Source of the DNA: Lachnospiraceae bacterium
Lineage (GTDB): Bacteria > Bacillota > Clostridia > Lachnospirales > Lachnospiraceae
Direction: 5' to 3'
Assembly: GCA_017634975.1 (NCBI GenBank)
Contig: JAGBMJ010000014.1
Coordinates: 1-55,672 of the forward strand
DNA length: 55,672 bases
A program made the position numbers and the translations under genes. This document shows positions 2,341-46,936 of the stretch, piece by piece; within the stretch, counting starts at the first letter, position 1; each line of letters starts with the position of its first letter. The notes below the pieces were generated by a model. It was given only the letters and a program-made list of their open reading frames with translations, was not told where the DNA came from and did no database searches.

Positions 2341-3645
2341 AAAAGAGATACCGCCCGATTAGGGCATTGACACATTGTTTCCAAAAATCCATTTGATTAT
2401 GTCGTTATAGTAGGTAGAAAAGAGATACCGCCCGATTAGGGCATTGACACACGATTATCTTTCGTATTAATCAGATTGTAAATATTGTATCGTAGAAAAG
2501 AGATACCGCCCGATTAGGGCATTGACACAAACCTACGAAGAACTCAAGCATTGTACAGCAATCTCCGTAGAAAAGAGATACCGCCCGATTAGGGCATTGA
2601 CACTCATGATATTTTGAGGAAGTTGATTCATTTCCTATTGTAGAAAAGAGATACCGTCCGATTAGGGCATTGACACGGATCATAATGCATAATCTTTTGT
2701 GGGTATTCTTGTAAGTAGAAAAGAGATACCGCCCGATCAGGGCATTGACACCACCTTTACCCCATTTTTATCGGGGCCCTTTCTGTAATAGTAGAAAAGA
2801 GATACCGCCCGATTAGGGCATTGACACACTTTCGGCTGCCTCTGTTGCTTCGACGTATTGTGTAAAAAAGAGATACCGCCCGATTAGGGCATTGACACCC
2901 GACATCTTTCCTTCGTCTTTTCGTTTCTTAAGATGTAGAAAAGAGATACCGCCCGATTAGGGCATTGACACATAATTACTGTTTCTTTTACTTCCGGCTT
3001 ATTTACAGTAGAAAAGAGATACCGCCCGATTAGGGCATTGACACTTATCGTCGAACCATTTTGTGGTTCCAAAATATCTTTGTAGAAAAGAGATACCGCC
3101 CGATTAGGGCATTGACACACTGCTTTAACTACGTAACCATTTACATACTGCTTACCGTAGAAAAGAGATACCGCCCGATTAGGGCATTGACACTTACCAT
3201 TAGCGTAGGCTTTCGCTGTGGGGATGCTTCAGGTAGAAAAGAGATACCGCCCGATTAGGGCATTGACACGCTTCGTAATTAGCCTTTTCATTCTCTGCTT
3301 TGGTTTTCGTAGAAAAGAGATACCGCCCGATTAGGGCATTGACACTAATAAGGTTCATCATATGAACCTCCTTTCTCCCTAACGTAGAAAAGAGATACCG
3401 CCCGATTAGGGCATTGACACAGAGGATTAGGTGTTTTTACTCCTTTCTGAGATATGTAGAAAAGAGATACCGCCCGATCAGGGCATTGACACCACCTTTA
3501 CCCCTTTTTTATCGGGGCCCTTTCTGTAATATAGTAGAAAAGAGATACCGCCCGATTAGGGCATTGACACCTCTAGAGATGACATCACTGCCCTTGTTGT
3601 TTGCACCAGTAGAAAAGAGAAACCGCCCGATCAGGGCATTGACAC
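2337..3645 (+). CRISPR. CRISPR array, 18 repeats of 37 nt and 17 spacers
   Basis: The repeat begins GTAGAAAAGAGATACC, contains the stem GCCC-GATTA-GGGC and ends GGGCATTGACAC. Repeats start at 2337, 2414, 2492, 2567, 2640, 2715, 2791, 2862, 2935, 3008, 3082, 3157, 3233, 3309, 3384, 3456, 3534 and 3609. Spacers are 34-41 nt. Variants: repeat 5 has one C to T change in the stem (kept as a G-U pair); repeats 6, 16 and 18 have GATCAG in place of GATTAG; repeat 8 begins GTAAAAAAG; repeat 18 has a second change. The degenerate last repeat places the leader at the left, giving plus-strand transcription and an ATTGACAC 5' tag, close to the ATTGAAAC tag common in type III (and some type I) systems. The variable spacer length also fits type III. 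The effector type cannot be proven because no effector genes are in the window. Confidence 0.97.
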
Positions 3646-13387: not shown

Positions 13388-13477
13388 AAGCTCTGTGCAA
13401 ATCGTAAAAATTTCAACTTTTTCAATAGAATTTCCTATGTAATTTTACCCTCCGAAAAATTATTATGATTTTACCAA

Positions 13478-13619
13478 GGGAGGTGCGATTGTAACGAAGT
13501 TACAATTTTGCATCGCACCGACCGAACGGACAGGATGCCGAAGGAATCCTGTCAATACACAGGGAGGTGCGATTATGACAAAGTCGTGCCACGCATACCA
13601 AAAGGAGGAAACAAAATGA
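13478..13619 (+). repeat. structured Shine-Dalgarno-carrying repeat, locus A (one full and one partial copy)
   Basis: Unit A1 starts at GGGAGGTGC 13478 and unit A2 at 13562 (84-bp period). In A1, GGTGCG (13482-13487) can pair with CGCACC (13514-13519). Inside this, ATTGTAAC-GAA-GTTACAAT (13488-13506) forms a hairpin, and GACAGGAT (13529-13536) pairs with ATCCTGTC (13546-13553). The units at 41017-41207 have the same layout with compensating base changes. A2 keeps the first hairpin (ATGAC-AAA-GTCGT) but then runs into a normal AAAGGAGG site for the binding-protein gene. Confidence 0.75.
13575..13619 (+). CDS. 14-residue leader peptide of repeat locus A
   Basis: The ATG at 13575 follows GGGAGGTGC with good spacing and reads MTKSCHAYQKEETK before TGA 13617-13619. 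The first residues MTKS match the small frames of repeat locus B. The stop overlaps the start of the sugar-binding lipoprotein (ATGA), so its translation could be coupled to it. The preceding copy A1 is in frame but has GTA where an ATG would be. Whether the peptide matters, or only its translation, cannot be told. Confidence 0.4.
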   Translation: MTKSCHAYQKEETK

Positions 13620-37561: not shown

Positions 37562-37603
37562 GGTGAATGCCTCCCTGTATAAACGTAAAATTTGACTCAA
37601 CCT

Positions 37604-37632
37604 ATTATACAGGAAGCGGCGCTTGTTGTACA
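37604..37632 (-). promoter_or_regulatory. predicted promoter of the DUF624 gene
   Basis: On the minus strand, TGTACA (37627-37632) and TATAAT (37604-37609) are separated by 17 bp. The 39-bp palindrome begins 5 bp upstream of the -35 box. Confidence 0.55.
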
Positions 37633-37636
37633 GAAT

Positions 37637-37675
37637 TATACACAATAACGGAAATCATTTCCGTTATTGTGTATA
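37637..37675. repeat. perfect 39-bp palindrome in a divergent promoter region
   Basis: TATACACAATAACGGAAAT (37637-37655) is the exact reverse complement of ATTTCCGTTATTGTGTATA (37657-37675) around a single C. The one-base centre argues for a DNA-level site (dimeric or tetrameric regulator operator) more than an RNA hairpin. It lies between the DUF624 and GH5 genes. Confidence 0.85.
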
Positions 37676-37698
37676 GCAAGTTTAGAAGGGAGAAAACT

Positions 37699-39087
37699 AT
37701 GAAACGAAAAATCGTATCTTTTATGCTGGCGGCAACGGTATGCGGGATGCTGTGTGGCTGCAAGGGGAATGCAGATCCCGGAGTGACTCCGGCACCTGCT
37801 GTAACAGAGGCGGAACAACCGAACCCGGAGACCGGGATCACCGACGGTCCGCCGACCGGAAATGTAACGACGGCAGATCCGACAGAGGAAGCAGCACCTA
37901 CGGAGGAGGCAGTTATGGAAACAACACCGACCCCAACGGAAGAAGATCCTGAGAAAACGAATGTACCGGATGGTATCGTAGAGGTACCGCTGCCGGCGGA
38001 GGTATCCATCCCGGAAAATGATGCTATGGCATTTGTGCGTGATATGAAAGCAGGATGGAACCTGGGCAATACCTTTGATGCGACCAACTGTACATGGCTA
38101 TCCGATCCGATGGAATACGAATCGGCCTGGTGCGGCGCAAAGACAACACAGGCTTTGATCAAAGAGATCCATAATGCCGGCTTTAATACGATCCGTATCC
38201 CGGTGTCATGGCACAATCATGTGGACGGCAATGACAACATCGACAGTAAGTGGATGGATCGCGTGCAGGAAGTGGTTGACTGGGCCTACGGGGAGGGTAT
38301 GTATGTGATCATCAATATCCATCACGATAATGAGGATGGCTTTGAGTATCCTTCCTACGATAAGATGGACCGGTCCCAAAAATATGTGACAAAGATCTGG
38401 GAGCAGATTGCGGATCGATTTGCGGATTATGATGAGCATCTGATCTATGAGACGATGAATGAGCCAAGACAGGTGGGGACGGATCACGAATGGTGGATCA
38501 ATGATAAAAACTCGGCTACGGCGAAAGAATGCTTTGACTGCGTGAACCAGCTGAACCAGGCGATCGTTGATACGATCCGTGCGAACGGTAAAGGCTACAA
38601 CACATCGAGATACATCATGGTGCCGGGTTACTGTGCAAATCCGGAGTTTGCGCTGATCGATGATTTTGTGCTCCCGGAGGATACCAAAGCAACGGAAGAA
38701 AACCGTATCATCGTATCGGTTCATGCCTATACACCATATGCTTTCGCCCTGGATCTGTCCGGTACATCGGAATTTGATATCGCAGCAAGAAAAGGCACCG
38801 GTGATATCAGCAGTTTTATGAAACGGCTGTATGAGAAGTTTGTCGTAAAGGGGATTCCGGTAGTCATCGGCGAGTACGGCGCATTGGAAAAAGGCGGTAA
38901 CGACGATGCAAGAAAACAGTTTGCTGCATATTATGTGGCAACGGCCAGACATTACGGTTTAACGACCGTATGGTGGGACAATAATGCGCATAACGCTTCT
39001 GGTGAATGCTTCCAGCTGATCAATCGTTCGAATCTGTCTTGGACCTATCCGGAGATCCGTGACCAGATCATGTACTATTGTGAGTAA
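37699..39087 (+). CDS. GH5 endoglucanase-type lipoprotein (probably subfamily 4)
   Basis: 462 aa from ATG 37699, which has GAAGGGAG in front. A lipoprotein signal (MKRKIVSFMLAATVCGMLCGC) and a Pro/Thr/Glu-rich tether of about 90 residues precede one GH5 barrel. The motifs are clear: MKAGWNLGNTFDA, AGFNTIRIPVSWHNH, YVIINIHHDNEDG, LIYETMNEPRQ with acid/base E255, IIVSVHAYTPY, and VVIGEYGAL with nucleophile E392. The pattern fits GH5_4, which includes cellulases, xyloglucanases and mixed-linkage glucanases. It would cut long beta-glucans at the cell surface for the importers encoded nearby. No carbohydrate-binding module is attached. Confidence 0.93.
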   Translation: MKRKIVSFMLAATVCGMLCGCKGNADPGVTPAPAVTEAEQPNPETGITDGPPTGNVTTADPTEEAAPTEEAVMETTPTPTEEDPEKTNVPDGIVEVPLPAEVSIPENDAMAFVRDMKAGWNLGNTFDATNCTWLSDPMEYESAWCGAKTTQALIKEIHNAGFNTIRIPVSWHNHVDGNDNIDSKWMDRVQEVVDWAYGEGMYVIINIHHDNEDGFEYPSYDKMDRSQKYVTKIWEQIADRFADYDEHLIYETMNEPRQVGTDHEWWINDKNSATAKECFDCVNQLNQAIVDTIRANGKGYNTSRYIMVPGYCANPEFALIDDFVLPEDTKATEENRIIVSVHAYTPYAFALDLSGTSEFDIAARKGTGDISSFMKRLYEKFVVKGIPVVIGEYGALEKGGNDDARKQFAAYYVATARHYGLTTVWWDNNAHNASGECFQLINRSNLSWTYPEIRDQIMYYCE

Positions 39088-39244: not shown

Positions 39245-41035
39245 ATGATGAAAAACGAACCGACCAACCGTCCGAAAAACCATATTGCCTGGCTTTGGGA
39301 AAATATGAAAGGCATGCGTGTCTTTTACATTATTGCTATGCTCGGGACCGTCCTTTATAACATCATGCAACTGACGGTACCGTATTTTTCGGGACGCATT
39401 GTGGATATTTTCCTGAGCGGTGAGGATGCGGCAGCCAATATCGCGACCAAACAGGATCTGTTCTATCAGCTGCTGGGAGCGATGGTGGGCTTTACCCTGC
39501 TGCGTACGCTTTTGGTATATCTGGACTGTATGGCTTACGAACATGTTTCCCAGCGCACGCTCTATAAGGTGCGTAATTTTCTCTATGACAAGATCCAGCG
39601 TCAGGATATGACTTTTTACAGTACTTATCGTACCGGTGATCTGATGACTCGTGTGACCGGCGATCTGGATGCCCTGCGCCATATGATCGCCTGGATCGTG
39701 CGCGCGATCATCGAATCGTTTTCACTGTTTACGGCTACCGCAGTATGCTTCTTTGTCATTAACTGGAAGATGGCATTATCCCTGCTGGCTGTAGCACCGC
39801 TGGTATTTATCGCGATCTTCTTTTTCCGCAAACGTGTGGCACCGATGCATGCAAAACTGCGTGAGAAATTTGCCCAGATGAATACCATTGCCCAGGAAAA
39901 CATTGCCGGTAACCGCGTGGTCAAGGCCTTTGTCCGCGAGGAATATGAAGAAGATAAATTCGATAAAGCCAATCAGGAGTATCGCGACACCAATGTGGAG
40001 ACCGCTATGATGTGGGTGCGTACACAGCCGGTGGTCGAGATCTTTGTCGATCTGCTTCCGGTCGTTATGCTGGCAGTAGGCGGTATTTTCCTGATCCGGG
40101 GAGAGATGACGATGGGCGAATATGTGACGATCTCCGGTCTGATCTGGGCGATCGCAAACCCCATGCGTATGATGGGAAATATCATGAACGAGCTGCAGCG
40201 TTTCAAGGCAGCAGGCGATAAAGTAATGGAGATCTACTATTCCGAGCCGAAGATCCGTGATAATCCGGGATGCATTGAGAAAGAAGGGCATTTCGACGGA
40301 AAGATCGAGTTCCGCAATGTATCTTTTCATTATGAAGACAGTGATATGCCGGTACTCAACGATATTTCCTTTACGATCGAGCCGCAGCAGACGGTGGCGA
40401 TCATGGGAGAGACCGGCTGCGGCAAAACCACGCTGATCAACCTGATTCCGCGTTTTCATGAAGTGAGCAGCGGGGAGATCCTGATCGATGGGGTGCCGGT
40501 GCAGGATTATTCGCTGCATAGTCTGCGGAAAAATATCGGTTTGGCAAACCAGGATGTGCTTCTGTATTCCGATACGATCGAAGGCAACATCGCATACGGT
40601 GATGTGCATCTGTCCTTTAAGGAAGTAACGAAGAGTGCAAAGCTTTCGGCAGCAGCATCGTTTATAAACCGTATGCCGGACGGCTATGATACGGTGGTCG
40701 GTGAGCGCGGCGTGGGCCTTTCCGGCGGACAGAAACAGCGTATCTCTCTGGCCAGGGCCCTGGCGGTGAAACCATCGATCCTGATCCTGGACGATACTAC
40801 TTCGGCTGTGGATATGGAAACGGAAAAAGAGATCCAGGATTCCTTAAGGCATTTGGATTTCCCTGCGACCAAGCTGATCATTGCGCAGCGTATCTCTACG
40901 GCAAAGACCGCGGACAGGATCATGATGATGCGGGACGGGCATATCGTAGAAAGCGGTACCCATGAGGAATTGGTCGCTCTGGGCGGCTATTACAAAGAGC
41001 TGGTTGATTTACAGGAGGGAGGTGCTCAAATATGA
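39245..41035 (+). CDS. ABC exporter half-transporter with degenerate catalytic site (heterodimer subunit 1)
   Basis: A 596-aa protein with six transmembrane helices (about 20-310) and a nucleotide-binding domain. Walker A GETGCGKTTLI has K394, the signature is VGLSGGQKQRISLARAL, and Walker B reads LILDDTTSAVD, where D517 replaces the catalytic Glu. That replacement is the hallmark of the non-catalytic site of heterodimeric exporters such as TM287/288, BmrCD and LmrCD. The last residues, LQEGGAQI, are encoded by the start of a repeat unit, and the stop overlaps the start of a small frame (ATGA at 41032). Its partner gene follows after the repeats. Likely substrates are drugs or lipids. None is indicated by sequence. 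Confidence 0.92.
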   Translation: MMKNEPTNRPKNHIAWLWENMKGMRVFYIIAMLGTVLYNIMQLTVPYFSGRIVDIFLSGEDAAANIATKQDLFYQLLGAMVGFTLLRTLLVYLDCMAYEHVSQRTLYKVRNFLYDKIQRQDMTFYSTYRTGDLMTRVTGDLDALRHMIAWIVRAIIESFSLFTATAVCFFVINWKMALSLLAVAPLVFIAIFFFRKRVAPMHAKLREKFAQMNTIAQENIAGNRVVKAFVREEYEEDKFDKANQEYRDTNVETAMMWVRTQPVVEIFVDLLPVVMLAVGGIFLIRGEMTMGEYVTISGLIWAIANPMRMMGNIMNELQRFKAAGDKVMEIYYSEPKIRDNPGCIEKEGHFDGKIEFRNVSFHYEDSDMPVLNDISFTIEPQQTVAIMGETGCGKTTLINLIPRFHEVSSGEILIDGVPVQDYSLHSLRKNIGLANQDVLLYSDTIEGNIAYGDVHLSFKEVTKSAKLSAAASFINRMPDGYDTVVGERGVGLSGGQKQRISLARALAVKPSILILDDTTSAVDMETEKEIQDSLRHLDFPATKLIIAQRISTAKTADRIMMMRDGHIVESGTHEELVALGGYYKELVDLQEGGAQI

Positions 41036-41124
41036 CGAAGTCATATTTTTATATTGCACCGACCGATGGGGCAGGATTGAGAAGCAATCCTGCCAATACG
41101 ACTAAGGGAGGTGCCCAAATATGA
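41032..41124 (+). CDS. 30-residue small protein of repeat unit B1
   Basis: ATG 41032 to TGA 41122-41124. It begins MTKSYFYIAPTDGAG and ends NPANTTKGGAQI. It starts within the stop of the ABC gene (ATGA) and its stop overlaps the start of the next small frame (ATGA). A GGAGGGAGG site is 8 bases upstream. The core IAPT...G.R.NP.NT is also readable in repeat locus A at 13500-13560. It is rich in small residues, with no membrane segment. It may be a real peptide or only a means of passing ribosomes down the message. Confidence 0.45.
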   Translation: MTKSYFYIAPTDGAGLRSNPANTTKGGAQI

Positions 41125-41207
41125 CGAAGTCATATTTTATCATTGCACCGACCGAAAGGGCAGGATTGAGAAACAATCCTGCTAATACGACTAAGGGAGG
41201 GATCTGA
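41121..41207 (+). CDS. 28-residue small protein of repeat unit B2
   Basis: ATG 41121 to TGA 41205-41207. It begins MTKSYFIIAPTERAG and ends NPANTTKGGI. It differs from the B1 peptide at only a few residues. The stop is one base before the ATG of the second ABC gene, and the GGGAGG inside its last codons (41195-41200) is that gene's ribosome binding site. Confidence 0.45.
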   Translation: MTKSYFIIAPTERAGLRNNPANTTKGGI

Positions 41208-41208
41208 G

Positions 41209-42975
41209 ATGGCGCGCAATACATTCAAAGAAGACGAAAATCTCGAAGAACCGTTTAACGTCAAACATCTGCTCAGAGCTTCCGGCTATATCAGGCGGTA
41301 TGCGAAACCGATGCTGATCGCACTGGGACTCAGCGGTCTGGGAGGAGCCTTTGGCTATCTGGCACCGATGATCATTCAGCGTGCGCTGGATGTTGCGATC
41401 CCGGCAGCGGATACGGATCAGCTGTTTATGCTGGTCGGGATACTGGTATTTGTTTATGGTCTGAGCGTGATCTTCAACCGGATCCGCAGCGGTCTGATGG
41501 TAAAGGCCAGCCAGAATATCATTTATGATATCCGTAAGGACATATTTGGACATCTGCAGAAGCTGCCGTTCCAGTATTATGATGACCGTCCGCATGGCAA
41601 GATCCTGATCCGTGTGGTAAACTACGTAAACTCGGTGTCGGATATGCTTTCCAACGGTCTGATCAATATTGTGCTGGAATGCTTCAACCTGTTGTTCATC
41701 ATTATCTTTATGTTTATCGTGGATGTGCAGCTGGCTTTGGTGGTTATGTGCGGTGTGCCGGTACTGGCGGTGTTTATGTTCTGGATCAAGAATAAGCAGC
41801 GCAAAGCGTGGCAGGCGGTATCCAATAAGAGTTCCAATTTAAATGCATACCTGCAGGAGAATATTACGGGGGCGCGTATTACACAGATCTTCGCGAGGGA
41901 AGATGAAAATGCAAAAACCTTTGCAGGTCTGTCGCAGGACTGCCGCAAGACATGGATGACGGCGGTGCGCTATACCAATCTGGTATGGCCGGGAATTGAT
42001 ACGATCTCGGTTTTTGTACGGGCATCAATCTATCTGTTCGGTATCCTCTTGTTCGGAACCGGACAGAAGAGTCTGGGAACCGTGGTTGCGATCTCCAGTT
42101 ATGCTTCGTTTTTCTGGCAGCCGATCATGAACCTTGGAAATATCTTCAACAACTTTATCAACAACGTGGCCTATCTGGAGCGTATCTTTGAGACCATTGA
42201 CGAGCCGGTAGAGATTGCGGATAAAGAGGGCGCCGAAGATATCGGTGAAGTGCTCGGTAAAGTGGAATTTGACCATGTGACCTTCTCCTACGACGGAGAG
42301 GAAGAAGTGCTGAAAGATGTATCCTTTACGGTAGAGCCCGGGCAGAGCATCGCTCTGGTGGGACCGACCGGTGCCGGCAAGAGCACCATTGTAAATCTGC
42401 TGTCCCGTTTCTATGATGTACAGAAGGGATCGATCCGGATCGACGGTAAGGATATCTCCGAAGTGACGCTCGGATCGCTCCGTTCCCATATGGGCATTAT
42501 GATGCAGGATCCTGTGATCTTTTCCGGAACGGTGGAGGACAACATCCGCTACGGTAAGCTCGATGCGTCTTCACCGCAGGTGCGGGAGGCCGGTAAGATC
42601 GTCTGTGCCGATGCGTTCATCCGCCGTATGCCGGAGGGTTACCGTACAGTAGTGAAGGAACATGGTTCTTCGTTAAGTCAGGGACAGAAGCAACTGATCT
42701 GCTTTGCGCGTACGGTGCTTTCGGATCCGTCCATCCTGATCCTCGACGAAGCAACCTCCAGTATCGATGTGCAGACGGAACGCGCCCTGCAGCAGGGACT
42801 GAACAGTATGGTGGAGGGGCGCACCTCCTTTATCATTGCCCATCGCTTAAGTACCATACGCAACTGTGACCGTATCCTCTATATCGATAACGGCGGCATC
42901 GCCGAAAGCGGCACACATGATGAGCTGATGGCAAAGAAGGGATACTATTACAAATTGTATACTGCACAGGGATAA
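41209..42975 (+). CDS. ABC exporter half-transporter with intact catalytic site (heterodimer subunit 2)
   Basis: A 588-aa protein with six transmembrane helices and a nucleotide-binding domain. Walker A is GPTGAGKSTIV (K391), and Walker B ILDEATSSID has the catalytic E514. The signature is SLSQGQKQLICFART, where Q replaces the second G, as often seen in the partner subunit of heterodimeric exporters. The intact Glu here with the Asp in subunit 1 gives the usual one-active-site heterodimer. Translation depends on a GGGAGG contributed by the repeat that separates it from subunit 1. Confidence 0.93.
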   Translation: MARNTFKEDENLEEPFNVKHLLRASGYIRRYAKPMLIALGLSGLGGAFGYLAPMIIQRALDVAIPAADTDQLFMLVGILVFVYGLSVIFNRIRSGLMVKASQNIIYDIRKDIFGHLQKLPFQYYDDRPHGKILIRVVNYVNSVSDMLSNGLINIVLECFNLLFIIIFMFIVDVQLALVVMCGVPVLAVFMFWIKNKQRKAWQAVSNKSSNLNAYLQENITGARITQIFAREDENAKTFAGLSQDCRKTWMTAVRYTNLVWPGIDTISVFVRASIYLFGILLFGTGQKSLGTVVAISSYASFFWQPIMNLGNIFNNFINNVAYLERIFETIDEPVEIADKEGAEDIGEVLGKVEFDHVTFSYDGEEEVLKDVSFTVEPGQSIALVGPTGAGKSTIVNLLSRFYDVQKGSIRIDGKDISEVTLGSLRSHMGIMMQDPVIFSGTVEDNIRYGKLDASSPQVREAGKIVCADAFIRRMPEGYRTVVKEHGSSLSQGQKQLICFARTVLSDPSILILDEATSSIDVQTERALQQGLNSMVEGRTSFIIAHRLSTIRNCDRILYIDNGGIAESGTHDELMAKKGYYYKLYTAQG

Positions 42976-43054: not shown

Positions 43055-44293
43055 TTACTGATTAAGTGAAGATTGTTTCAATTTTTGATTTTCTGCTATA
43101 GCATTCTGGTACTTTGCCTGCAGTTCTTTGAATTTTGTCTCCAGATCCTGATTATGAGCCTTCAGATCCTGATTATGAGCCTCGAGATCCTGATTATGAG
43201 CTTCAAGTTCCTGATTATGAGCTTCGAGATCCTGATTATGAGCCTTCAGATTCTGATTATGAGCCTTCAGATCCTGATTATGAGCCTCGAGATCCTGATT
43301 ATGAGCCTCAAGCTGCTGCTTTTGAACCTCCAAGGTCTGTTTTTGGGCTTCCAGTTCTTTCTTCTCCTCTTTCAATACAGAAACCTGGTTTGTCATATCT
43401 TCTACCATATAATTTATGGTATTTTTATCCAAAAATGCAATCATTTCCGAATACATACGGATCACCTCCTCCGGTTTGCGTCGGTATTCTGCGATATCAT
43501 GATAATACTCCCGAAACTGCGGGAACTTATCAATCAATGTCAGGATATCCTGGGCACGCGCGGACGAAAAAAACGTAAGCCAGGCATCCTGAATGTTGCT
43601 GATACCTTCATTTTGCAGTTTTTTTCGGAAAGTGTCAAGAGAGATGTAAGTGATATTCTGCAGGGCTTTCAGATTCACACCGCTGTCATAGGTGATGTTC
43701 CTTCTGTGGATATAGTGATCCCGGACGTTTTTTACGAGAAATTCTCCGGAACTTTTATCCATTAGTATGATGATATAGACCGGAGGCATATCCTCATATT
43801 GAAATCGTTTTCCATGGAGATTTTTCATACGCGTGTACTGCCGCATGATCAAATCTGCTGCATATACCTCGCTTCGCTCTCCGGGAAAATAAAGTCCAAT
43901 TTTCTGCATTTCCAGATTGACGAGTTTATGATCGCCAATCTCTATCAACAGATCTACAATTACCATACTGCTGTCATCGCAGAGTGGCTGACCTTCTCGT
44001 TCAATGATTTCCATGATCTTTACTTTTTCACCTAAAACAGCGCTCAGGAAGCTTTCTAATCGTTCCGGGTGTTCATAAGGAGAGAGTATCTTCTTGAAGA
44101 AATTATCATAAGTGATCAACAGACCGGATTGTCCCATAAAGAAATTAAGCAGGTCTTGGCGTTGTTCTGCTGTGAATTCTTCAAAGATCTTCCATGTCTG
44201 ATCATCCTTCATGATCAGGCGAATGGCATCCTCTTTGCATAATGCTTTGCCAAAGATTTCTGTTAAAGTGTTTTCAGTTATCATTTTTTTCAT
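43055..44293 (-). CDS. Rpn-family PD-(D/E)XK nuclease with heptad-repeat tail
   Basis: About 412 aa from ATG 44293, which has AAAGGAG in front. The central part matches the PD-(D/E)XK nuclease-family transposase/Rpn group: LITYDNFFKKILSPYEHPER, VDLLIEIGDHKLVNLEMQK (putative D...ExQ active site), YAADLIMRQYTRMKNLHG and PPVYIIILMDKSSGEF. Members are recombination-promoting nucleases or defence-related proteins, often in many copies. The C-terminus is a long coiled coil with eight nearly perfect LEAHNQD-type heptads, encoded by a 21-bp tandem repeat. The tail length is probably variable between strains. It stands alone in the minus orientation. Confidence 0.85.
   Translation of the reverse strand: MKKMITENTLTEIFGKALCKEDAIRLIMKDDQTWKIFEEFTAEQRQDLLNFFMGQSGLLITYDNFFKKILSPYEHPERLESFLSAVLGEKVKIMEIIEREGQPLCDDSSMVIVDLLIEIGDHKLVNLEMQKIGLYFPGERSEVYAADLIMRQYTRMKNLHGKRFQYEDMPPVYIIILMDKSSGEFLVKNVRDHYIHRRNITYDSGVNLKALQNITYISLDTFRKKLQNEGISNIQDAWLTFFSSARAQDILTLIDKFPQFREYYHDIAEYRRKPEEVIRMYSEMIAFLDKNTINYMVEDMTNQVSVLKEEKKELEAQKQTLEVQKQQLEAHNQDLEAHNQDLKAHNQNLKAHNQDLEAHNQELEAHNQDLEAHNQDLKAHNQDLETKFKELQAKYQNAIAENQKLKQSSLNQ
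43145..43312 (-). repeat. eight tandem 21-bp units encoding L(E/K)AHNQ(D/E/N) heptads
   Basis: The 21-bp unit reads on the plus strand as ATCCTGATTATGAGCCTC plus three bases and is repeated eight times without gaps. Units differ at the E/K and D/E/N codons only. Each unit keeps the frame and one coiled-coil heptad. Confidence 0.95.
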
Positions 44294-44308
44294 AAGACTC
44301 CTTTCCAT

Positions 44309-44614: not shown

Positions 44615-46936
44615 ATGCAAAACAATTATGTTCTCAGATATACAAAACCGGCAGAAGATTTTAATGAAGCGTTACCGATCGGAAACGGAAGGATCGGCGG
44701 GATGGTTTACGGACGTCCGGAGCAGGAGTTGATCGGATTAAACGAAGACTCCATCTGGTCCGGCGGATTGCGGCATCGCATCAATCCGAATGCAAAAACA
44801 GCCCTGCCGGAAGTGCGGAAACTCCTGGCCGAAGGAGATATCCCTGCTGCGGAAAAACTGGCATTTGAAACGATGCAGGGGATCAATCTCAACAGCAGGC
44901 ATTATATGCCTCTGGGGGATCTGCGGATGGATTTCCGTAATATAAATAAAGACGGGATTGCCGGTTATGAAAGAACCCTGGATATCGGTAATGCGATTGC
45001 CGGAGCAAAGTATCAGGTCGGTGATGTTGATTTTACCAGGGAGTATTTTGTATCCGCTCCGGATCAGGCGCTTGTTGTGCGTATAATATCCTCAAAACCC
45101 GACGCGATCAGTTTTGATGCCTTTATTGACGGGCGTGATGATTATTATGATGATAACCGGCCATGCGGAAAAAATCGTATTTTATATACCGGCGGATGTG
45201 GTTCTGCAGACGGGATTTTTTTCGCGGCCGTTCTGACCGGACGGACACGGGGCGGAACGGTCCGTACCGTCGGTAATGTACTGCGGGTAGAAGGCGCATA
45301 CGAAGCGGTTCTTGTGCTTACGGTAAGGACAAGTTTTTATGAATACAGTCTATGTGAAAAAGGGGATCGTCTGCGCAATCCGCAGGGTGGTTCGGTGCTT
45401 CCCGGAAGACGGTATGAAAAAAGAGCCATAGAAGATGCGGAACGTTGTCTGAAAAAAAATCCCTCTGAACTTCGTGCCAGACATATCAATGATTACAGAA
45501 CACTGTTTGAACGGGTAGATTTTCATTTAACCGATAATAGTGACGGAGCTTCACAACTTCCGACGGATGAGCGCATCGCCAGACTGCATAACAGTATCGA
45601 GGCATCAGAAGAGCCTTGCGGTGATAATAAACTGATGGAACTGTATTTTCAGTTTGGCCGTTATCTGATGATCAGCGGAAGCCGGCCGGGAACGCAGCCG
45701 CTCAATCTCCAGGGAATCTGGAATAAGGATATGTGGCCTGCCTGGGGCAGTAAATACACAGTGAATATCAATACGGAAATGAATTACTGGCCGGCGGAGA
45801 GCTGTAACCTGGCCGAATGTCATCTGCCGCTATTTGATCTTCTGGAAAGAGTCTGTGAAAACGGACGCATAACAGCAAAAGAAATGTACGGTATCGACAA
45901 GGGCTTTACTGCGCATCATAACGTGGACATCTGGGGCGATACGGCACCGCAGGACAAATGGATCCCGGCAACACTGTGGCCCATGAGCGGCGCATGGCTG
46001 GCGATGCATGTATTTGCGCATTATGAATATACACTGGATGAAGATTTTCTGCGGGAAAAATATCACCTGATCAAAGAGGCAGCCGAGTTCTTTACGGAGT
46101 TTCTGATCGAAGACGGCGAAGGAAGACTGGTAACCTCACCATCGGTTTCGCCGGAAAATACATACCGGACGGAAAAAGGCGTGGAAGGCTGTATGTGCAT
46201 CGGTCCTTCGATGGATTCACAGATCCTCACAATGCTGTTTAAAGATGTGATCAAATGCACGGAGATCATGAAAACGGATGAGGCTTTTGCGGATATCTTA
46301 AAGCAGATGCTGCAGAAACTGCCGCAGCCGGACGTCGGAAAATACGGACAGATCAAGGAATGGGCGGTGGATTATGATGAAGTGGAGATCGGACACCGGC
46401 ACATTTCACAACTGTTTGCACTGCATCCTGCGGACCTGATCACACCGCAGGGAACACCGGAACTGGCACAGGCAGCAAGAGCAACGCTGGATCGAAGACT
46501 ATCCCATGGCGGCGGTCACACCGGCTGGAGCCGTGCGTGGATCGCAAATATGTGGGCCCGGCTCTATGACAGTGAGGAGTTTTACGGAAATATCCTCCAT
46601 CTCCTTGCTAACTCCACCAATCCGAATATGCTGGATAACCATCCGCCGTTCCAGATCGACGGGAATTTCGGCGGTACGGCAGCCATTGCGGAAGCCTTGC
46701 TGCAATGTACCGGCGGTGAGATCATTTTGCTGCCGGCACTTCCGAAACAGTGGCCGGAAGGCAGTATAAAAGGATTGCGCGCAAAAGGCGGCATTACCGT
46801 AAATCTGCGCTGGAGCGAAGGAAAACTTACAGCAGCAGAACTGATCCCCGATCACGATATTAAATGCCGCGTACGGATCGGAGAGGAAATCCGAACAATC
46901 CCGCTGACGGCAGGGGAGAAGTTTATGATTCAATAA
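44615..46936 (+). CDS. GH95 alpha-L-fucosidase/alpha-L-galactosidase
   Basis: A 773-aa inverting glycoside hydrolase of family 95. The N-terminal beta-sandwich starts with ALPIGNGRIGGMVYGRPEQE and LNEDSIWSGG, and the C-terminal part is an alpha/alpha barrel. Residues matching the known active site of this family are present: N384 and N386 in VNINTEMNYWPAE (base-activating pair), E514 in SPSVSPENTY and D682 in FQIDGNFGGT. There is no signal peptide, so it works in the cytoplasm on imported oligosaccharides, removing terminal fucose or galactose-type caps, for example from xyloglucan or host glycans. It has its own promoter. The end overlaps the convergent hydrolase gene by 14 bp. Confidence 0.93.
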   Translation: MQNNYVLRYTKPAEDFNEALPIGNGRIGGMVYGRPEQELIGLNEDSIWSGGLRHRINPNAKTALPEVRKLLAEGDIPAAEKLAFETMQGINLNSRHYMPLGDLRMDFRNINKDGIAGYERTLDIGNAIAGAKYQVGDVDFTREYFVSAPDQALVVRIISSKPDAISFDAFIDGRDDYYDDNRPCGKNRILYTGGCGSADGIFFAAVLTGRTRGGTVRTVGNVLRVEGAYEAVLVLTVRTSFYEYSLCEKGDRLRNPQGGSVLPGRRYEKRAIEDAERCLKKNPSELRARHINDYRTLFERVDFHLTDNSDGASQLPTDERIARLHNSIEASEEPCGDNKLMELYFQFGRYLMISGSRPGTQPLNLQGIWNKDMWPAWGSKYTVNINTEMNYWPAESCNLAECHLPLFDLLERVCENGRITAKEMYGIDKGFTAHHNVDIWGDTAPQDKWIPATLWPMSGAWLAMHVFAHYEYTLDEDFLREKYHLIKEAAEFFTEFLIEDGEGRLVTSPSVSPENTYRTEKGVEGCMCIGPSMDSQILTMLFKDVIKCTEIMKTDEAFADILKQMLQKLPQPDVGKYGQIKEWAVDYDEVEIGHRHISQLFALHPADLITPQGTPELAQAARATLDRRLSHGGGHTGWSRAWIANMWARLYDSEEFYGNILHLLANSTNPNMLDNHPPFQIDGNFGGTAAIAEALLQCTGGEIILLPALPKQWPEGSIKGLRAKGGITVNLRWSEGKLTAAELIPDHDIKCRVRIGEEIRTIPLTAGEKFMIQ

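What the first reader, a model, noticed from the sequence alone, without database searches (positions are those of the whole stretch)
41017..41207. Tandem structured repeat carrying ribosome binding sites and two small overlapping genes joins the halves of an ABC exporter
Seen: two 89-bp units create the chain ABC1 stop-ATGA-small frame-ATGA-small frame-1 bp-ABC2 start. The last residues of ABC1 (GGAQI), both small proteins (30 and 28 aa, MTKSYF...IAPT...NPANTTKGG) and the ABC2 ribosome binding site are all made by the repeat. In each unit the GGGAGGTGC site can pair with GCACC and the ATG lies inside a 9-bp stem. Inference: a portable translational relay, with subunit 2 made only when ribosomes unfold successive units, or a mobile repeat selected for leaving the operon expressible. 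I know of no described family with this design.
Basis: partly seen in the sequence, partly recalled or inferred. Interest (0 to 1): 0.85.

Follow-up and report, generated by a model that had tools for sequence, protein, structure and literature searches.

The report
GA-cis repeat inserted at ribosome-binding sites
The tandem repeat between two transporter genes is two copies of a known but unexplained RNA motif (GA-cis) of gut bacteria, which looks like a small insertable repeat that tends to land on ribosome-binding sites between genes and to leave one on each side.

Summary
In detail: two 89-bp units (41016-41193, 91% identical) join ABC1 to ABC2 through two short frames. They are not an undescribed family: they match Rfam RF02987 (GA-cis), a structured RNA motif. 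A third copy lies at 13475-13563.

Comparison points to an inserted repeat. 18 of 20 genomes with the ABC2 gene lack it; the three nearest of these read ...GGAGG-ATG there. Five other loci have unoccupied counterparts. Of 91 loci with enough flank, 62 lie in sense just upstream of an SD and start, 3 in antisense; adding 11 rows first left out gives 65 and 3 of 102. In 52 loci, SD word and preceding bases agree between a copy's two flanks more than in swapped pairs (0 of 2000 permutations). One 1.9-Mb genome gave 47 matches. Twenty downstream genes tested share no pathway; one copy sits between groES and groEL.

The SD is buried in a covarying helix with tandem G.A pairs. The 28-30 aa peptides are not conserved: 24 of 68 hairpin-AUG frames have at most 6 codons and the rest differ.

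Best reading: a small interspersed repeat that favours translation-initiation regions. Mobiliser and effect on expression are unknown; the scorable copies of three related genomes (G011, G019, G023) are not at SDs.

The parts
39245..41035 (+). ABC exporter half 1; last residues LQEGGAQI* are supplied by unit 1 (LQEGGI* in the near relatives without the repeat)
41016..41104 (+). GA-cis unit 1 (89 nt)
   Evidence: RF02987 at 41014-41104, 36.3 bits in the own-genome search, 26.2 bits, cut-off 34.7
41105..41193 (+). GA-cis unit 2 (89 nt)
   Evidence: RF02987 at 41103-41193, 36.0 bits; 29.4 bits over 41103-41179
41017..41025 (+). unit 1: 5' arm GG-GA-GGTGC of the outer helix, containing the Shine-Dalgarno
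41056..41064 (+). unit 1: 3' arm GCACC-GA-CC of the outer helix
41028..41048 (+). unit 1: inner 9-bp hairpin containing the ATG (41032-41034)
41070..41094 (+). unit 1: second hairpin
41106..41114 (+). unit 2: 5' arm of the outer helix with the Shine-Dalgarno
41145..41153 (+). unit 2: 3' arm of the outer helix
41032..41124 (+). small frame 1, 30 codons; this unit's stem is AATATGAC, where the TTATGAC stem of other genus copies gives MTKS*
41121..41207 (+). small frame 2, 28 codons
41195..41200 (+). GGGAGG, the Shine-Dalgarno of ABC2 at the 3' border, matching the SD of near sites without the repeat
41209..42975 (+). ABC exporter half 2
13475..13563 (+). third full GA-cis copy, upstream of a sugar-binding-protein gene (Peripla_BP_4)
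   Evidence: (49.2 bits)
13561..13597 (+). partial, cut-down unit directly after the third copy (approximate limits, read by eye)

Best explanation
The 41017-41207 feature is two head-to-tail copies of the GA-cis motif (Rfam RF02987). The evidence best fits a non-autonomous small interspersed repeat, found here almost only in one bacterial family (Lachnospiraceae), that enters in sense orientation at the Shine-Dalgarno of a downstream cistron and leaves an SD on each side. One unit entered the junction ...CAGGAAGGAGG(G)ATCTGAG-ATG between ABC1 and ABC2, probably in an ancestor shared with G014; in this species it is now doubled, easily by slippage between the flanking GGGAGG words. Shown: family identity; junctions with and without the repeat; sense placement beside SD and start for about two thirds of scored loci; shared SD context on the two flanks; covarying helix through the SD. 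Inferred: that it moves, that something else mobilises it, the direction (gain rather than loss) at each locus, and that it is tolerated because it brings its own stop, SD and AUG and preserves the next SD. Likely effect on translation (inferred): the helix masks the unit's SD; a ribosome ending ABC1 at the hairpin TGA opens it and can restart at the overlapping AUG, so ABC2 stays coupled. The 28-30 aa peptides are by-products of one stem variant.
For: Family: RF02987 above cut-off for unit 2 (36.0 vs 34.7), unit 1 (36.3) and the 13475 copy (49.2). Sites without it: of 20 genomes (of 35 searched) with ABC2 at E <= 1e-150, G000 has two units, G014 one, 18 none in the 260 nt upstream, five of them 82-96% identical orthologues; unoccupied counterparts at L017 in G016, flanks 94% and 98% identical, L005 in G030 and window 13475 in G016 and G030, L023 in four relatives, and L059 in 12 of 12 other homologues, 57-76% identical. 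Placement: of 91 loci, 62 have an SD plus start of an ORF of 100 aa or more within -5..+60 of the 3' end in sense (44 of the 62 at +9..+23), 3 in antisense; with 11 genus rows first left out, 65 and 3 of 102. Within G253 23 of 28 vs 1 of 28. Flanks: same SD word on both sides 35 of 52 against 22.5 expected, 4 nt before it 1.83 vs 1.30 matches, 0 of 2000 permutations each. Structure: 115 of 383 cells changed on both sides and kept paired, covariation score 0.759 vs 0.206 shuffled; GGGAG goes with GACCGA-type 3' arms (12 of 12) and AGGAG/AGGAA with GACGA or near forms (34 of 35). Spread: 31 of 397 family genomes, 47 matches in G253, copies more alike within than between genomes (0.78 vs 0.66). 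20 downstream genes without a common pathway; one copy lies between groES (Cpn10) and groEL.
Against: No mobiliser was found. Target duplication is statistical, not a clean fixed-length TSD: in L017 and window 13475 the borders do not reconstruct exactly, and some 3' flanks carry longer pieces of a unit that may be remnants of tandem copies. The genus rows I first left out do worse: of 11 with enough flank only 3 show a sense start; the scorable copies of G011 (five, all below the Rfam cut-off), G023, G019 and one of G014 show none, and those of G011, G019 and G023 lie in or beside longer dispersed repeats. 29 of 91 main loci also fail my simple ORF rule. The upstream-stop control was less sharp (70 sense vs 40 antisense of 91). 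Two of the five covariation measures are not unusual against shuffles (pairs with a double change 169/500, pair types 25/500), and related sequences inflate the others. Strong covariation can also mean a selected RNA function.
Confidence: 0.72

Rival explanations
1. GA-cis is a genuine cis-regulatory RNA (translational switch) selected at each site: the SD-masking helix opens on some signal, and tandem units sharpen the response.
For: Strong covariation through the SD, sense placement before genes, SD in the helix, tandem arrays in several genomes.
Against: Presence and absence differ between genomes whose flanks or orthologues are 94-98% identical; 20 downstream genes share no pathway and include GroEL, RRF and DnaX; 8 of 101 units have no SD word in the head; the gene's own SD lies outside the helix, after the element.
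Confidence: 0.18
2. A translational relay whose two small proteins are functional products and whose successive unfolding gates ABC2.
For: ATGA overlaps and open frames at this junction, also a 48-aa frame in the single unit of G014.
Against: Across 101 units, 68 have an AUG 3-15 nt after an SD word; of these 68 frames 24 have 6 or fewer codons and the rest read the conserved RNA in different frames. The 18 other ABC2 junctions lack it. No Pfam match for the peptide.
Confidence: 0.05
3. The copies spread only by duplication and recombination between SD-like words (microhomology), without any dedicated mobiliser.
For: Purine-rich SD word at both ends in many loci, tandem arrays at 86-90 nt period, partial units fused to genes at SD-ATG.
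Against: Dispersal to unlinked sites with 47 matches in a 1.9-Mb genome and genome-specific subfamilies suggest repeated transposition-like copying.
Confidence: 0.15

Closest known systems
GA-cis RNA motif, Rfam RF02987
   Same: Same sequence and structure model; both units and the 13475 copy match it.
   Different: I recall (from no call) that it was published in 2017 as a candidate cis-regulatory RNA; that paper is not held, and the only held paper found to name it lists it in a table of Rfam 15 (one passage). Insertion at SDs and sites without it were not described in anything I could see.
Pneumococcal BOX, RUP and SPRITE repeats
   Same: Small structured dispersed repeats, some in operons, some making expressed frames (passages of PMC3049150).
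   Different: There, repeats are over-represented between convergent genes and their frames lack good SDs; most scored GA-cis loci sit in sense on SDs between cistrons.
Rickettsia palindromic elements (RPE)
   Same: Structured repeats that enter genes without destroying them (one passage of PMC3733652).
   Different: RPEs lie in-frame inside ORFs; GA-cis lies at ORF borders on the SD.
TAACTGA heptamer arrays of Beggiatoaceae
   Same: Tandem repeats in forward orientation just upstream of start codons of unrelated genes (abstract and passages of PMC4679880).
   Different: Heptamers that seem to replace the SD; GA-cis is an ~88-nt two-hairpin unit that carries an SD and leaves the next one.
MITEs and REP/REPIN elements (general features recalled; MITE features also in passages)
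   Same: Short, structured, dispersed, genome-specific subfamilies.
   Different: No fixed-length TSD and no transposase link found; terminal inverted repeats were not tested.

Membership tests
GA-cis (RF02987) | Covariance-model score at or above 34.7 bits | tested here: met
   Unit 2 36.0, unit 1 36.3, 13475 copy 49.2. Scores vary with the stretch searched: unit 1 26.2, unit 2 29.4, and neither unit is listed.
GA-cis (RF02987) | Two-hairpin structure with the SD arm paired to the 3' arm | tested here: met
MITE | Target-site duplication of fixed length | tested here: inconclusive
   Own-locus flanks agree more than swapped ones but lengths vary and two loci do not reconstruct cleanly
MITE | Terminal inverted repeats shared with a resident transposon | not tested
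   No search for a full-length partner beyond the left-half model R1
MITE | Presence/absence at orthologous sites | tested here: met
Riboswitch | Association with one pathway or regulon | tested here: not met
   20 of the 63 downstream proteins, chosen by me; 19 have Pfam matches, no common pathway
Riboswitch | Ligand binding | not testable with these tools
   needs in-line probing
Small protein genes | Conserved reading frame and peptide | tested here: not met

The most novel reading that the evidence does not exclude
GA-cis is a mobile genetic element whose target is the ribosome-binding site itself: it recognises a Shine-Dalgarno region, inserts in sense, duplicates the SD and hides its own copy in a tandem-G.A helix, so that it can split operons at dozens of cistron junctions (a groES-groEL junction among them) without silencing either gene. 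Its strong sense bias at translation starts even allows insertion at the RNA level (into mRNA, then copied back), which nothing here excludes.
Probability: 0.48. Interest if true: 0.78.

Novelty: new variant of a known kind. Interest (0 to 1): 0.57.

Why it matters
A repeat that lands on ribosome-binding sites and regenerates them would be an unusual way for a selfish element to live inside operons. It would explain why a motif filed as cis-regulatory shows no regulon, warn that such RNA motifs can be insertion elements, and offer natural gene pairs with and without the unit for measuring reinitiation and coupling.

Tried and rejected
Small proteins as the point: rejected, frames not conserved. 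A regulon: not seen in the 20 downstream proteins tested. Phage or plasmid carriage: three exact-pattern scans of viral contigs found 0, and a distant blastn of one unit with flanks (146 bases of L054) against plasmid and phage records found none; exact patterns are narrow, so this is weak. A locus of G213 with two copies had no homologous DNA in 25 relatives, so it gave no comparison. Model R1 (left half) over 16 genomes listed many copies; I did not look systematically for a longer element with a transposase and inspected only stretches around copies. One search mixed both strands because the outer arms are palindromic; one search repeats it with the sense units only. Paper searches for repeats that target SDs found no such description, only the pneumococcal and TAACTGA papers as relatives; these and the REP paper were seen in passages only.

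Samples; 88 of the 135 rows, chosen by me (weak rows and some tandem neighbours left out). To these I added 13 genus units (101 units), leaving out 17 of the 29 rows: G011 and G023 copies, G019, contig-end copies, an orthologous duplicate and a likely contaminant. Two of those rows plus the duplicate had been (103 entries; sense start with SD within 250 nt in 86, antisense in 13); the 101 units collapse to 99 loci, 8 dropped for short flanks, 52 of 91 usable for the SD-word test; 99 of 101, of which 85 not tandem; 55 of the 90 left halves, chosen by me for spread, some ends moved by a few bases; one search dropped 4 without the motif, duplicates and more than 6 per genome; 42 sense units recognised by a subfamily word, 11 dropped at edges, 3 followed by another unit, 28 scored. 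Searches scored only 10 candidates per genome with stricter filters, so their counts are lower bounds; one search scored 150 candidates per genome at E <= 0.05 and its list is cut.

Full report
What is there. The window holds two 89-nt direct repeats at 41016-41104 and 41105-41193, 91% identical, exactly at the junction of two ABC exporter halves (39245-41035 and 41209-42975). ABC1 ends in ATGA with small frame 1 (41032-41124, 30 codons), which ends in ATGA with small frame 2 (41121-41207, 28 codons), one base before the ABC2 ATG. Each unit folds into an outer helix that contains GGGAGG, an inner 9-bp hairpin that contains the AUG, and a second hairpin; in a 301-nt fold the two units pair with each other instead. 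A full unit with the same core lies at 13475-13563, followed by a cut-down one.

What it is. These units are GA-cis, Rfam RF02987. Scores are 36.0 bits for unit 2, 36.3 for unit 1 in the own-genome search and 49.2 for the 13475 copy, against a cut-off of 34.7; depending on the stretch searched, one or the other unit falls below it. The family has matches in 10 of 35 genomes of the genus (8 over the cut-off), 31 of 397 of the family (29 over it) and 5 of 391 of the class, four of those five in the same family and the fifth below the cut-off; the last two are lower bounds because only 10 candidates per genome were scored. I take the family to be Lachnospiraceae because contig C47 of G241 is held under the title 'Lachnospiraceae bacterium isolate STD2_95' (same length, 100% identical match).

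Sites without it. Of 35 genus genomes, 20 have ABC2 at E <= 1e-150. G000 has two units, G014 has one (with an extra hairpin inside), and 18 show none in the 260 nt upstream. The three nearest of these (G016, G030, G019) read CAGGAAGGAGG(A/T/G)ATCTGA..-ATG with ABC1 ending LQEGGI; farther ones have other junctions. The repeat therefore sits in the SD of ABC2, changed the tail of ABC1 to LQEGGAQI and has GGGAGG on both sides. Five further loci have unoccupied counterparts: L017 in G016; L005 in G030, where GCATAGGAGGAAAAG is split with ATAGG(G)AGG on both sides; L023, flanked by TTTATGAG(A/G)AAGGC, absent in four relatives; window 13475 in G016 and G030, with a deleted remnant in G014; and L059, absent within 150 nt upstream of all 12 other homologues, which are 57-76% identical. 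L017 and window 13475 do not reconstruct to a clean duplication. A sixth attempt (G213) found no homologous DNA.

Where copies sit. Of 91 loci with at least 400 nt on both sides, 62 have an SD and the start of an ORF of at least 100 aa within -5..+60 of the element's 3' end on the sense strand, 44 of them at +9..+23; the antisense control gives 3. An upstream ORF ends within -150..+40 of the 5' end in 70 (antisense 40), with piles at +3..+5 and +19..+22, where the stop lies inside the element. I had left 17 genus rows out of this set; of the 11 of them with enough flank 3 have a sense start and none an antisense one. The eight misses are the five G011 rows, one G023, one G019 and one G014 row; those of G011, G019 and G023 look like parts of longer dispersed repeats. 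All together: 65 sense, 3 antisense of 102. In the single genome G253, 23 of 28 scored array ends have a start in sense (ORF of 80 aa or more) and 1 in antisense; that genome gave 47 matches to the left-half model in 1.9 Mb at E <= 0.05, and several of its contigs end at copies. The same SD word stands on both sides in 35 of 52 loci against 22.5 when partners are swapped, and the four bases before it agree more than in swapped pairs (1.83 vs 1.30; 0 of 2000 permutations for both). Remnants of tandem units may add to this signal.

Structure. On 55 left halves chosen for spread, the outer helix has compensatory changes at 7 of 7 pairs, 90.9% of 383 cells paired, and a covariation score of 0.759 against 0.206 for shuffles and at most 0.140 for slid versions; the count of pairs with a double change is itself not unusual (169 of 500 shuffles reach it). 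The helix runs on through the SD: 40 of 55 have tandem A.G/G.A between the two G-C stretches, 7 have Watson-Crick or G-U pairs there instead, 8 something else; GGGAG goes with GACCGA-type 3' arms in 12 of 12 rows and AGGAG/AGGAA with GACGA or near forms in 34 of 35; eight rows have another 5' word. Of the 8 of 101 units without an SD word in the head, several keep the helix by paired changes, for example AGCTTGAT with ATCAAGCT and GGTCGGTGCGAT with ATCGCACCGACC (read directly).

Small frames. Of 101 units, 93 have GGAGG, GGAAG or GGAG in the first 13 nt, and 68 of these have an ATG 3-15 nt on. The 68 frames run from 2 to 433 codons: 24 have at most 6 codons, MTKS* being commonest (10). The longer ones read the shared RNA in different frames. 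At 41032-41207 the stem is AATATGAC, which avoids the stop that TTATGAC brings. The single unit of G014 has a 48-codon frame. Three related units cannot show selection on protein.

How it most likely works. Shown: a structured repeat is present at SDs in some genomes and absent in relatives, mostly in sense, with SD context on both sides, as genome-specific subfamilies (within-genome identity 0.78, between 0.66 on a sample of pairs). Of 63 downstream proteins I tested 20: GroEL, ribosome recycling factor, DnaX, a dihydrodipicolinate-synthase-family protein, a GH43 enzyme, FliS, two ABC proteins, two FAD oxidoreductases and others. One copy lies between groES and groEL and supplies the groES stop. 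Inferred: it is a non-autonomous mobile repeat; it is tolerated because it ends the upstream gene, carries its own SD and AUG, and leaves the downstream SD in place; tandem copies arise by slippage between the flanking purine words. A ribosome finishing ABC1 inside unit 1 would open the helix and could restart at the overlapping AUG twice before ABC2. Whether ABC2 output falls, stays or becomes regulated cannot be told from sequence.

Known and new. The motif is known; the only held paper found to name it lists it in a table, and the discovery paper, which I recall from 2017, is not held, so I cannot say what it reported. Searches for repeats that target SDs found no such description in the held library, which lacks most subscription papers. 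BOX repeats, RPEs and TAACTGA arrays are the nearest kinds of which I saw passages.

Noticed in passing
G000:C133 (L001) and G226:C23 (L065): This GA-cis copy and its near flanks are almost identical in a genome of another genus; with 7.46% contamination reported for G000, contig C133 is probably foreign to the bin.
   Followed up: partly
L035 (G014 ABC junction) and L029: Longer GA-cis variants with extra hairpins inside the second hairpin; at the ABC junction the frame stays open (48 codons).
   Followed up: partly
G253 loci L236, L241, L246, L256: Genes whose start region is a partial unit (AGGAGGAAGGCTTATG then the gene), as if the repeat had donated the translation start.
   Followed up: partly
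L084 (G201): A GA-cis copy between groES (Cpn10) and groEL (Cpn60), with the groES stop inside the element.
   Followed up: yes
G023, G019 and G011 loci (L010, L016, L009, L015): GA-cis-like hairpins in or beside longer dispersed repeats, not at SDs in the scorable copies; four G023 contigs begin at copies.
   Followed up: partly
window 2414-3571: Array with a repeat GTAGAAAAGAGATACCGCCCGATTAGGGCATTGACAC at about 75-nt period; looks like a CRISPR array.
   Followed up: no
window 43055-44308, minus strand: PD-(D/E)XK nuclease family transposase (PDDEXK_2) whose C-terminal part has a 21-bp tandem repeat coding AHNQDLE.
   Followed up: partly
window 37567-39087 and 44615-46936: GH5 cellulase-family and GH95-family genes lie on either side of the ABC pair.
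   Followed up: no
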